A stretch of 44,535 nt of DNA from a virus. Of this stretch, positions 39,460-44,224 are shown in pieces (within the stretch, counting starts at the first letter, position 1; the number at the start of each line of letters is the position of its first letter). The DNA lies in the IMG/VR virus record IMGVR_UViG_3300025785_000033, positions 1 to 44,535 of that record; one strand, 5' to 3'. The notes under the pieces were generated by a model. The model had not been told where the DNA came from. It worked only from the letters and a program-made list of their open reading frames with translations, and made no database searches. The position numbers and the translations under genes are program-made.

Positions 39460-39476
39460 GGGGTCAAGCTGACCCC
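39460..39476. repeat. GGGGTCA-AGC-TGACCCC palindrome, copy 5
   Basis: Perfect arms; lies between the terminator and the ribosome site of the amidoligase gene (ATG 39507). Confidence 0.92.
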
Positions 39477-39506: not shown

Positions 39507-41354
39507 ATGAAACTTTATTTCGCAACCTTTCAAACCAATGATTCTTTCGATACACCAAAACGGAGATCGCACACGGTGCTCATCGCAGAGCAAATCGAAA
39601 TCAGAAATGACCAAAGCCACCGCAAAATCTATGCAGGCTTGTACGCAAGCACATCGACCACAAACCGTAGAACCTCGCTGTTCACAAACCGCGCTACCCG
39701 TTTCAACCCAGAAAACCTGCACGTGCTGAGTGCAAGCACAGAAGAAAGTCCAGAAGATTTTATACATACCCACTACGGCCATATCACTAGCGAAAACCTG
39801 CAAGTCACCGAACTGACGCCCATTCAAATGCGTTGGCTTAGTGACCCCGAGCAAGGTTTGGGGGTCAAGATCAAGTTATTTGACCGTATGTACATGAACA
39901 CCGTTGGCCCTGTGGACAAATTCATAAGCCGTGTCACGCGGCAGATGAGAGAGCGCCTCGACAAACCACGCCCATATGCAGTCTACAAAGGCACCATGTC
40001 CTACTCTGCGGCGGACTACAAGCACAGACAAGCTGTTACAGCCGCGTGTCACAACGCGATCAAGCAAGCCGTTGCAGACGATGACGTATCTGTGTTTGAC
40101 GACTGGATACACGAGCACTATGAAAACATGACTGTGCAAAACGGTCTATCCGATTGGTTTGACCGTGTTAAAGACTTCTTAGACGATAAGGGTTTGTACA
40201 CCGACCTAAAAGTTTGTGACTGCGGCCACATGGAGTACACAGGCGAGACGCATGATGTGCGTGACGATACGTGGTGCGATGCGTGCTTCCGTGATGATGC
40301 TGTATTCGTAGAGGATAGAAACGAGTACTGGTCGCGTGACGATGCGTACTGGAGCGACAACCACGATGCGTATTATTCCTATGACCGTGACTCTGACGAG
40401 GCTGACGAAGACGGAGACGATGGTGATCCCAGCGCCCTCATGGACTACTCGACCAACGTGCTCGACCATCTGAACCGAGACACATCGTTCACGCCAACAC
40501 CTTACAGCGACTTGCTCATGGGCATCGAGTTGGAGATTGGCGTAGGGGAGGACAACTACAAGCGCGATGCGGTATCCAAGATTCGCTCTGCCTTGGGCGA
40601 GGATTATGTGGTGTGTAAGTATGACGGCTCTTTGCCTGACGACGGCTTAGAGATCGTGACTGCACCGCGCCGACTGGCTCATCACATCGAGCAGTTCAAG
40701 GACTGGGTTGTGCCACAAGGGTTTCGGGCATGGGATGCCAAGCGTTGCGGTATGCACATCCACATCGACTCGCATGGCTTCTCCAAGCTGACGCTCGGTA
40801 AGTTTTTCATGTTCATCAACGCCGAGTCAAACGCAGACTTTGTGCGCCAGATCGCAGGTCGTCATCCAAACCGCGACAACCAAGCGCGTGAGTATTGCGC
40901 CGCCGAGCATCAAGACATCCTCACCAACCCGAGCAAGGCGTTGAAGGGTAAGTCAGATCAACGCTATCGCATGATTAACACGAACAACCTGACAGGCTCC
41001 GAGTGCAACCGACTAGGCCTCAAGGACAACTACAACCGCCGTGGCTACGACACTATCGAGCTTCGTATCTTCAGGGCTTCGCTCAAGAAAGAACGATTGC
41101 TTGCACAGATCGAGTGGACTCATGCGGTCGTGATGTTCTGTCGCACAGCATCGTGGCGTGACTTGAACGGTGAAGCGTTTGTTGCATGGCTCAAGACTAC
41201 CAACAATGCGTACTCGAACCTTGCCAAATGGTATGGCTTGAGCAAGCGCGTCAAGGAAGCAACGGCCACAACCTGCGAAGACGTAACCCCTGCGCCCGAG
41301 CCTGTGACTACCGAGTCGCGTGATGTGCAACGTGCCCAACGGGGGTCACTTTGA
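39507..41354 (+). CDS. Amidoligase (GS-fold COOH-NH2 ligase) with zinc-ribbon N-terminal part
   Basis: 615 residues from ATG 39507 (AGGAG upstream). Residues 1-230 are uncharacterised. C237/C239 and C257/C260 (VCDCG…WCDACF) form a likely zinc ribbon, followed by an aromatic/Asp-rich acidic linker (262-307). The catalytic part at about 335-570 has GIELEIG (339-345), DGSL (373-376), GLEIVTAP (380-387), CGMHIHID (414-421) and TIELRIFRASL (516-526), the signature set of glutamine-synthetase-like amidoligases. These use ATP to join a carboxylate to an amine. The class II amidotransferase gene at 41529 would supply ammonia. Substrate unknown. Confidence 0.85.
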   Translation: MKLYFATFQTNDSFDTPKRRSHTVLIAEQIEIRNDQSHRKIYAGLYASTSTTNRRTSLFTNRATRFNPENLHVLSASTEESPEDFIHTHYGHITSENLQVTELTPIQMRWLSDPEQGLGVKIKLFDRMYMNTVGPVDKFISRVTRQMRERLDKPRPYAVYKGTMSYSAADYKHRQAVTAACHNAIKQAVADDDVSVFDDWIHEHYENMTVQNGLSDWFDRVKDFLDDKGLYTDLKVCDCGHMEYTGETHDVRDDTWCDACFRDDAVFVEDRNEYWSRDDAYWSDNHDAYYSYDRDSDEADEDGDDGDPSALMDYSTNVLDHLNRDTSFTPTPYSDLLMGIELEIGVGEDNYKRDAVSKIRSALGEDYVVCKYDGSLPDDGLEIVTAPRRLAHHIEQFKDWVVPQGFRAWDAKRCGMHIHIDSHGFSKLTLGKFFMFINAESNADFVRQIAGRHPNRDNQAREYCAAEHQDILTNPSKALKGKSDQRYRMINTNNLTGSECNRLGLKDNYNRRGYDTIELRIFRASLKKERLLAQIEWTHAVVMFCRTASWRDLNGEAFVAWLKTTNNAYSNLAKWYGLSKRVKEATATTCEDVTPAPEPVTTESRDVQRAQRGSL

Positions 41355-41514
41355 CGCGGCAGTTAATGCCGCAGCAAATCGTATTCGTATGCAAATGCTG
41401 AACCAGCCCTCACCTCGTGTTGACCACAGTTCACTCACCTACACAGTATCGCGTGACGCCAACGGCCAGCTTTACTACAGCACTCTCACCCCTTTCAACC
41501 CAAACTACTTCTAA
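41323..41514 (+). CDS. Small ORF between amidoligase and amidotransferase
   Basis: 63 residues from ATG 41323 (a GTG lies one codon upstream), overlapping the amidoligase end by 32 bp. VPNGGHFDAAVNAAANRIRMQMLNQPSPRVDHSSLTYTVSRDANGQLYYSTLTPFNPNYF. The C-terminal beta hairpin looks plausible, but the ribosome site is weak. If real it is coupled to the ligase and might be a carrier or substrate peptide for the pair; that is speculation. Confidence 0.5.
   Translation: MCNVPNGGHFDAAVNAAANRIRMQMLNQPSPRVDHSSLTYTVSRDANGQLYYSTLTPFNPNYF
41342..41358. repeat. Degenerate palindrome, copy 6
   Basis: GGGGTCA-CTT-TGACGCG: left arm intact, right arm half. The TGAC of the right arm contains the amidoligase stop codon. 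It lies inside the small overlapping ORF. Confidence 0.6.
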
Positions 41515-41528
41515 CTAGGAAAATCATC

Positions 41529-42590
41529 ATGTGTTTAATCATCTCTGGTCAATCAAACAAAATCCGTTCAACCTTGCTGGACACTCACGGCTTGCTTGCG
41601 GATATCTACTCCTCCAACCCTGACGGTATCGGCATCATGTACGGCACATCCAAGGGTCTCAAGGCCAACAAGTTCTTACCCAAGAACATTGGCGAGGCAC
41701 GCAACATGATCGAGCGTATGCCGCAAGACGACCGTGATCTGGCGATTCACTTCCGCTGGACTACACACGGCCACACCGACTTGAGCAACTGCCATCCCTA
41801 TGACGTAGTGCCAGGCTTCATTGCAATGATGCACAACGGCGTACTGCACACAGGTAACGCGGCAGACACGGCGCGTAGCGATACGTATCACTTCATCAAG
41901 GACTACCTGCATGACACCGTAGTGAAGTATCCCGACATCGTGTACGACAAAGGCTTCTTGACAATGGTGGCCGAGTTCATTGGCGACAATCGCTTTGTGT
42001 TCATGAATGGCGAGGGGCGCATCAGCCACGTCAACTATGACCAAGGCGTTGAGCATGACGGTATGTGGTTCAGCAATACCTACGCATGGAAGCCAAGCAA
42101 ACTCATCCCCAACTACTACAAGTCAACCAAGCGTGCGTGGCATGGTCATCTCTCCAATGGCTACGAGATGTGGGATGAGGATGAGGAGATCATCGGCTCA
42201 TGGTCTAGTGCTGGCACCGAGTTCACATCGACCAAGGGCATCCACGCTATGACTGACAACGAGTTTGCAAAACAAGAATCAAAGATAGAAGCGCCTTTCG
42301 CATACGAGCTTGGTGACGCGCTGATGCAAGCGGATGCAGAACTGTTGTCGGCGTACTTCGATGAGATGCCTATAACTTGTATCAACATCATTATGGGTAC
42401 ATTCGAGGCCACGTTGACAACACACAACGCAACAAATGACTTCGAGGCCGAGGTGATCGCGGCGTGTCTGGACAACGACATAGCCACCATGCACGACTTC
42501 GTGCGTAACGACCCCGAGACTGTTGCGGAAGTCATGTGTTGGCATCTGAACTGGGCGTACCAACCATCGAAAGTACCCGCGCTCGTTTGA
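41529..42590 (+). CDS. Class II glutamine amidotransferase (Ntn hydrolase)
   Basis: 353 residues. Cys2 directly after Met is the N-terminal nucleophile (MCLII). Family motifs follow: DGIGIMYG (32-39), AIHFRWTTHGHTDLSNCHP (72-90; the Arg and Thr-His-Gly that bind glutamine), GFIAMMHNGVL (96-106; oxyanion-hole Asn-Gly). This is the GATase-II set of GlmS, PurF and GlxB-like proteins. It hydrolyses glutamine to give ammonia. The C-terminal 130 residues are unassigned. Paired with the amidoligase upstream, it suggests amide or isopeptide formation on an unknown acceptor. Confidence 0.87.
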   Translation: MCLIISGQSNKIRSTLLDTHGLLADIYSSNPDGIGIMYGTSKGLKANKFLPKNIGEARNMIERMPQDDRDLAIHFRWTTHGHTDLSNCHPYDVVPGFIAMMHNGVLHTGNAADTARSDTYHFIKDYLHDTVVKYPDIVYDKGFLTMVAEFIGDNRFVFMNGEGRISHVNYDQGVEHDGMWFSNTYAWKPSKLIPNYYKSTKRAWHGHLSNGYEMWDEDEEIIGSWSSAGTEFTSTKGIHAMTDNEFAKQESKIEAPFAYELGDALMQADAELLSAYFDEMPITCINIIMGTFEATLTTHNATNDFEAEVIAACLDNDIATMHDFVRNDPETVAEVMCWHLNWAYQPSKVPALV

Positions 42591-43891: not shown

Positions 43892-44224
43892 ATGGACGAA
43901 AACAAAAAAGTCTACGCGCTACTGGGGCAGCACGTGGAGTTCAACAAAGTGGATACGTTGTGGGTCGCAGTCATCCCCGATCGCACCATGATCGCAATGG
44001 AAGAACACCAAGCGCCGTTGTTGTCGCAAGACATTGACTGCCTATTGTTGACTGTGCGTACTAGCAACTGTTTGCGTGCCGAGAAAATCAACACGGTCAG
44101 GCAGTTACTCGATATGCGCGAACGCGACTTGTTGGTCATCCCAAACTTTGGCCGCAGGTGTTTAGATGATGTGAAGCAAGCCCTTGCCGAACATGATTTT
44201 TATTTAAAAGGAGATAAGAAATGA
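43892..44224 (+). CDS. Phage protein with RNA polymerase alpha-subunit C-terminal domain (alpha-CTD-like)
   Basis: 110 residues. Residues about 51-108 read LLLTVRTSNCLRAEKINTVRQLLDMRERDLLVIPNFGRRCLDDVKQAL, matching bacterial RpoA alpha-CTD (LTVRSANCLKAE…[20 protein letters not shown]). The DNA-contacting set is kept: Arg56 (E. coli R265), Asn59 (N268), Cys60, Leu61, Arg62 (K271) and GRR at 87-89 (GKK). The 50-residue N-terminal part is unrelated to alpha. Probably a monomeric decoy or adaptor that binds UP elements or activators. Overlaps the next ATG by 4 bp. Confidence 0.85.
   Translation: MDENKKVYALLGQHVEFNKVDTLWVAVIPDRTMIAMEEHQAPLLSQDIDCLLLTVRTSNCLRAEKINTVRQLLDMRERDLLVIPNFGRRCLDDVKQALAEHDFYLKGDKK

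What the first reader, a model, noticed from the sequence alone, without database searches (positions are those of the whole stretch)
39507..42590. Amidoligase plus class II glutamine amidotransferase pair: possible novel modification system
A GS-fold amidoligase with all signature motifs sits next to an Ntn-type amidotransferase with Cys2 nucleophile. The ligase carries an uncharacterised 230-residue N-terminal part, a zinc ribbon and an acidic-aromatic linker. Comparative genomics has predicted that such ligases make peptide or amide modifications in phages and bacteria, but substrates of phage members are unknown to me. An intervening 63-residue ORF could encode a substrate or adaptor. Targets might be host cell wall peptides, host proteins or phage proteins.
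Basis: partly seen in the sequence, partly recalled or inferred. Interest (0 to 1): 0.85.

Follow-up and report, generated by a model that had tools for sequence, protein, structure and literature searches.

The report
Phage amidoligase–glutaminase gene pair
A freshwater phage carries two adjacent genes that look like a glutamine-fed enzyme pair for adding amide groups to an unknown target; the pair is real and strictly conserved, but the kind was already predicted in other phages and its target has still not been shown.

Summary
Window 39507-41354 (+) encodes a 615-aa PF12224 amidoligase with a glutamine-synthetase-like fold and all catalytic residues. Window 41529-42590 (+) encodes a 353-aa class II (Ntn) glutaminase starting Met-Cys. 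Profiles, AlphaFold/Foldseek and residue conservation agree. The pair is one module: of 80 contigs found with the glutaminase, every one with enough upstream sequence has the amidoligase directly upstream on the same strand; the reverse search found one exception (C. difficile phage AR1086-1). It recurs in unrelated phages (MEP401/402, ctgrD200, vB_AciJM_313, mycobacteriophage Marvin gp105-106) and two bacterial contigs.

It is not the multi-gene "peptidoglycan modification cassette" of phiEco32/LUZ24: the COOH-NH2 ligase, GGCT and ATP-grasp genes were not found in these phages, while positive controls rang. The closest match is Marvin's two-gene version, zinc-binding motif included. The 63-aa ORF between the genes is not conserved outside near-identical phages, so it is an unlikely substrate. 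Most likely mechanism: the glutaminase feeds ammonia to the ligase, which amidates a carboxylate, plausibly on a host cell-wall precursor; the target is unproven. Verdict: new member of a known, predicted but untested kind. Phage-private intergenic palindromes seen nearby deserve their own look.

The parts
39507..41354 (+). amidoligase gene, 615 aa (P0001)
   Evidence: PF12224 27.8 bits vs cut-off 22; phrog_16683 9.5e-19; GS/YbdK fold first
39507..40196 (+). variable N-terminal region, residues 1-230, no family above cut-off
   Evidence: weak DUF2716 only; diverges fastest between close relatives (pN 0.167 vs 0.015 in the catalytic domain)
40200..40391 (+). zinc-ribbon plus beta-hairpin domain, residues 232-295 (C239, H241, C257, C260; W/Y/D-rich hairpins)
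   Evidence: Cys/His invariant in 31 lineage members and in Marvin gp105; modelled as strands, pLDDT about 88-93 to residue 290
40392..40442 (+). acidic low-confidence linker, residues 296-312
   Evidence: pLDDT <50 at 297-304; aligned region averages 32% D/E
40512..41201 (+). GS-like catalytic domain, residues 336-565 (E341, E343, D373, S375, E382, H417, H419, R452, Y487, N491, E518, R520)
   Evidence: residues identical in all 12 phage homologues compared, including Marvin; invariant in 41
41320..41514 (+). 63-64 aa ORF between the two genes, doubtful gene, not a conserved part of the module
   Evidence: absent in most relatives, gap 19-62 nt; frame stays open in L007 and L008 with a changed middle
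41529..42590 (+). class II glutamine amidotransferase (Ntn) gene, 353 aa (P0002)
   Evidence: MC start; HFRWTTHG, HNG and SDT motifs invariant in the lineage; GlmS/EgtC fold
41529..42098 (+). glutaminase domain, residues 1-190
   Evidence: PDB profile search and Foldseek
42108..42281 (+). disordered Y/D-rich linker, residues 194-251
   Evidence: pLDDT <50; aligned region averages 19% D/E and 19% Y/W/F in 34 homologues
42294..42563 (+). C-terminal helical domain, residues 256-345, no named family
   Evidence: pLDDT about 75-95
39460..39476 (.). intergenic palindrome GGGGTCA-n3-TGACCCC just upstream of the amidoligase
41342..41358 (.). degraded palindrome copy (2 mismatches) overlapping the amidoligase stop codon
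42607..42623 (.). palindrome copy (1 mismatch) just after the glutaminase stop codon

Best explanation
A two-gene, glutamine-dependent amidoligase module in the early gene block of the phage. Shown by sequence and models: a GS-like ligase and a class II glutaminase, both with intact active sites, evolving as one unit. Inferred: after Met removal, Cys2 of the glutaminase releases ammonia from glutamine; the ligase activates a carboxylate with ATP as an acyl-phosphate at its Glu/His metal site and amidates it. The zinc/beta-hairpin and N-terminal parts would select the substrate or dock the partner. Inferred and weaker: the carboxylate belongs to a cytoplasmic cell-wall precursor (stem-peptide Glu or DAP), so the infected cell builds altered wall that hinders competing phages or host responses. 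My confidence is about 0.75 for the ligase-plus-ammonia-donor chemistry and about 0.35 for the cell-wall target.
For: Ligase: PF12224 above cut-off, GS and YbdK as top folds, catalytic residues identical in 12 phage homologues. Glutaminase: C2, R76, T79, G81, H102-N103-G104, D118 invariant; GlmS/EgtC fold. One unit: 73 of 80 glutaminase contigs show the ligase by profile, three more show its C-terminal tail, four start too close to the gene; of 78 ligase loci, four lacking the glutaminase end within 57 nt and one is a true exception. Same order in two bacterial contigs, Marvin and twice in vB_AciJM_313. Purifying selection: dN/dS 0.14 in the catalytic domain, 0.07 in residues 231-330. In a P. 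aeruginosa phage evolved in the laboratory, missense changes arose in both an amidoligase and an adjacent GATase gene in two evolved phages (PMC11450229). Precedent for a glutaminase-ligase pair amidating peptidoglycan: MurT-GatD (PMC3267633). Cell-wall prediction for phage amidoligases: PMC10580990, PMC5498523, PMC11945000.
Against: No biochemical evidence exists for any of these phage proteins in the papers I could read. The cell-wall idea was built for a larger cassette; its COOH-NH2 ligase, GGCT and ATP-grasp genes were not found here. No wall-related gene is conserved next to the pair; the conserved neighbours are phage core genes. The match to LUZ24's amidoligase is weak (hhalign probability 26%). 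Foldseek E for glutamine synthetase is only 3.7e-3 with low TM-scores, so the fold match is at domain level. Lysis-enzyme types do not discriminate.
Confidence: 0.4

Rival explanations
1. The pair modifies a protein (host or phage): the ligase amidates or adds an amino acid to side-chain or C-terminal carboxylates, with the zinc domain recognising the target.
For: Large variable N-terminal region plus a conserved zinc/beta-hairpin domain suit recognition of a macromolecule. The module occurs in phages of very different hosts (Methylophilales, Acinetobacter, Mycobacterium), so a universal target is plausible. Both proteins carry acidic-aromatic stretches that could dock partners or be substrates.
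Against: No shared third gene as a candidate substrate in the unrelated phages. The 63-aa ORF is not conserved.
Confidence: 0.22
2. Small-molecule metabolism: the ligase makes a gamma-glutamyl-type or amidated metabolite and the Ntn protein acts as a gamma-glutamyl or amide hydrolase (EgtC-like) rather than an ammonia donor.
For: EgtC, a hydrolase in ergothioneine synthesis, is among the best fold matches of the glutaminase, and YbdK, a GS-like ligase, is second for the amidoligase. An auxiliary nitrogen-metabolism role has been proposed for phage-borne amidoligase and GATase (PMC10945688).
Against: GlmS (glutaminase) is ranked first. Neither GGCT nor other metabolic genes accompany the pair. 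A large zinc-containing recognition part is unusual for a small-molecule enzyme (inference).
Confidence: 0.2
3. Modification of phage nucleic acid or a nucleotide precursor, in the way class II GATase domains serve some 7-deazaguanine DNA modifications (my own knowledge).
For: The module lies close to replication genes in MEP401 and LUZ24 and, in this lineage, upstream of a DNA polymerase-like gene.
Against: The Pfam tally of the window's other genes listed no base-modification family, and none is evident among the conserved neighbours.
Confidence: 0.07

Closest known systems
Mycobacteriophage Marvin gp105-gp106 (cluster S)
   Same: adjacent amidoligase then class II GATase as the whole module; identical catalytic residues; same zinc-binding C/H/C/C pattern
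   Different: shorter ligase without the long N-terminal region; different host; gp105 is annotated in the record as 'glutamine amidotransferase domain protein' although its matching part is the amidoligase
Methylophilales phages MEP401/MEP402 gp05-gp06 (PMC10580990)
   Same: same two-gene order, catalytic residues identical in MEP401
   Different: about 22% identity to the window ligase; zinc ligands not conserved; GATase shorter
phiEco32 / LUZ24 / RIO-1 peptidoglycan modification cassette (Iyer 2009; PMC5498523; PMC11945000)
   Same: PF12224 amidoligase followed by a class II GATase
   Different: has COOH-NH2 ligase, RimK-like ATP-grasp and GGCT genes, not found here; amidoligase only distantly related
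Glutamine synthetase / YbdK ligase superfamily
   Same: fold and Glu/His catalytic layout
   Different: sequence too distant for a PDB profile search; substrate unknown
MurT-GatD
   Same: works like it: a two-gene glutaminase-ligase pair for amidation (PMC3267633)
   Different: different folds on both sides: Mur ligase plus class I-type GATase

Membership tests
Amidoligase_2 (PF12224) | score above the curated cut-off | tested here: met
   27.8 vs 22 bits; 33 of 34 homologues match at E<=0.01
Amidoligase_2 (PF12224) | GS-like fold with acidic/His metal site and catalytic Arg | tested here: met
   Foldseek GS prob 0.99, YbdK 0.97, though E only 3.7e-3; E341, E343, E382, H417, E518, R520 invariant
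Amidoligase_2 (PF12224) | ATP-dependent amide bond formation | not testable with these tools
   needs biochemistry
Class II glutamine amidotransferase | Pfam GATase_6 or GATase_4 above cut-off | tested here: not met
   16.5 vs 27 and 12.7 vs 23 bits
Class II glutamine amidotransferase | Ntn fold with Cys at position 2 and Gln-binding motifs (HxRWxTHG, HNG, D118) | tested here: met
   GlmS/EgtC fold prob 1.00; key residues invariant in 37 homologues
Class II glutamine amidotransferase | glutaminase activity | not testable with these tools
   needs biochemistry
phiEco32/LUZ24 peptidoglycan modification cassette | amidoligase followed by GATase | tested here: met
phiEco32/LUZ24 peptidoglycan modification cassette | COOH-NH2 ligase, ATP-grasp and GGCT genes | tested here: not met
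   no match in the window record, 12 lineage contigs (some may be fragments) and 4 phage records; LUZ24 and a Kuravirus ring
Marvin-type two-gene amidoligase-GATase module | only two genes, adjacent, same order, intact sites on both | tested here: met

The most novel reading that the evidence does not exclude
A self-sufficient two-gene amidation system, spread across unrelated phages, whose zinc/beta-hairpin domain directs amidation (or amino-acid ligation) onto a specific host or phage macromolecule other than peptidoglycan, as a new kind of phage takeover or protection chemistry.
Probability: 0.15. Interest if true: 0.8.

Novelty: new member of a known kind. Interest (0 to 1): 0.42.

Why it matters
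Phage amidoligases have been predicted since 2009, and I found no demonstrated substrate in the papers I could read. The minimal pair removes the confounding extra enzymes of the large cassette, so one co-expression experiment could identify the product. Its strict conservation, and its recurrence in unrelated phages, suggest that the reaction matters to infection.

Tried and rejected
(1) 63-aa ORF as substrate: rejected, not conserved. (2) Membership in the large peptidoglycan cassette: rejected for lack of three of its genes, with positive controls; a first search without a positive control was uninformative. (3) Link between lysin type and module: inconclusive. The window has a GH19 lysin, Marvin and ctgrD200 have Amidase_2, and the M15 peptidase family gave nothing. 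(4) Bacterial operons as a clue to the substrate: the first scan found no relative; the second found two contigs with the same pair and no informative extra gene. (5) Solved relatives of the ligase by sequence: none. (6) Iyer 2009 and the Marvin paper were not held, so their content is cited through other papers. (7) Rfam on the early region: only the tRNA-Pro above its gathering score.

Full report
What is there. The window is a 44,535-base virus record with tailed-phage structural genes on the minus strand and an early gene block on the plus strand from about 36,450. In that block 39507-41354 encodes a 615-aa protein and 41529-42590 a 353-aa protein, each after an AGGA-type ribosome site.

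Ligase. PF12224 is above its cut-off and phage amidoligase families match residues 335-566. In 41 homologues E341, E343, D373-G-S375, E382, H417, H419, R452, Y487, N491, T516, E518 and R520 are invariant; the twelve catalytic residues tabulated are also identical in Marvin gp105, AR1086-1 and a Microcoleus phage. The AlphaFold model (mean pLDDT 76, catalytic part mostly 80-96, weak at 470-487) finds glutamine synthetase, YbdK and a YbdK-like protein first in the PDB, though with modest E-values and TM-scores. Among viral models it finds annotated phage amidoligases, including those of Pseudomonas phage tf and Salinivibrio phage CW02, and the Marvin-group protein of Mycobacterium phage Tesla. 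The zinc motif C239-x-H241...C257-x2-C260 is invariant in the lineage, present in Marvin and not conserved in MEP401.

Glutaminase. Pfam alone is below cut-off, but the family profile, fold and motifs all place it with class II glutaminases: Cys2, HFRWTTHG, HNG and SDT. A disordered Y/D-rich linker and a C-terminal helical domain follow.

One module. Of 80 glutaminase contigs, 73 show the ligase immediately upstream by profile; three more show its C-terminal tail; the other four begin less than about 100 nt before the glutaminase. Starting from the ligase, 73 of 78 loci have the glutaminase; four end within 57 nt and one, C. difficile phage AR1086-1, truly lacks it. Contigs overlap between searches and include near-identical phages, so these are not independent events. 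The independent support is that the same order recurs in MEP401/402, ctgrD200, vB_AciJM_313 (two pairs), Marvin and two bacterial contigs, Candidimonas nitroreducens and a Pseudomonadales MAG. Both genes are under purifying selection, strongest in residues 231-580 of the ligase. The N-terminal 230 residues evolve fastest, which would fit a target- or partner-recognition part.

What it is not. COOH-NH2 ligase, GGCT and the RimK-like ATP-grasp enzyme of the LUZ24/phiEco32 cassette were not found in the window record, 12 lineage contigs, MEP401, ctgrD200, Marvin or vB_AciJM_313, while LUZ24 and a Kuravirus ring. The contigs may be fragments, but the four phages are records described as complete. 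The 63-aa ORF is not a shared part.

Mechanism. Established chemistry of the two families (general knowledge) predicts glutamine hydrolysis at Cys2 and ATP-dependent amidation at the GS-like site. The target is not shown. Published predictions say cell wall, with superinfection exclusion (PMC10580990, PMC5498523, PMC11945000, PMC11318856). One paper reports that two laboratory-evolved P. aeruginosa phages both gained missense changes in an amidoligase and the neighbouring GATase gene (PMC11450229), which fits joint function but says nothing about the target. MurT-GatD shows that a glutaminase-ligase pair can amidate peptidoglycan (PMC3267633). Because the pair is self-sufficient here, the reaction should be complete with two enzymes. 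That fits simple amidation better than the several unusual linkages proposed for the large cassette (inference).

Verdict. The finding is correct, well supported and a new member of a known, untested kind. The module is flanked by phage-private palindromes, described under noticed in passing, which suggest that it belongs to the early regulated block.

Noticed in passing
window 36467, 36914, 37626, 38832, 39460, 41342 (2 mismatches), 42607 (1 mismatch); also e.g. L013, L018, L036, L043, L051, L066, L070, L073: The early plus-strand intergenic gaps carry a 17-bp palindrome GGGGTCA-n3-TGACCCC (7 sites; 0 of 100 shuffles reach 7). All 50 lineage contigs tested have at least 3 copies of their own palindrome with similar geometry but different arms (14 different top arms), e.g. 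GGGGAC, GGGGAG, GGGGAA, GGGGTA, GAGAGA; arms are near-identical within a phage while loops often vary. The stretches of MEP401, ctgrD200, Marvin and LUZ24 examined show none. This looks like operators (or hairpins) of a regulator whose specificity diverges between phages; the nearest parallel found is the 17-bp dyad repeats of cluster O mycobacteriophages (PMC4351075).
   Followed up: partly
window 43892-44224 (+): 110-aa protein whose residues 37-100 are a stand-alone RNA polymerase alpha C-terminal domain (PF03118, E=2.7e-20), a possible transcription take-over factor; a cluster of 6 related ORFs occurs among the window and its relatives.
   Followed up: partly
L172:3734-6647 (-) and L088:3825-6795 (+), Acinetobacter phage vB_AciJM_313: Two separate amidoligase-glutaminase pairs in one phage, suggesting two targets or specificities.
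   Followed up: no
L089:4674-5786, C. difficile phage AR1086-1: Amidoligase with intact residues but no glutaminase beside it; the next ORF looks like a nucleotidyltransferase (my reading of its sequence), so it may use free ammonia or another amine.
   Followed up: no
L171:4699 onward, Microcoleus phage My-WqHQDG: An amidoligase-like ORF is directly followed by a hypothetical protein of about 3,400 aa.
   Followed up: no
L170:3127-4488, Marvin gp105: Annotated 'glutamine amidotransferase domain protein' in the record, but its matching part is the amidoligase; gp106 is the GATase.
   Followed up: yes
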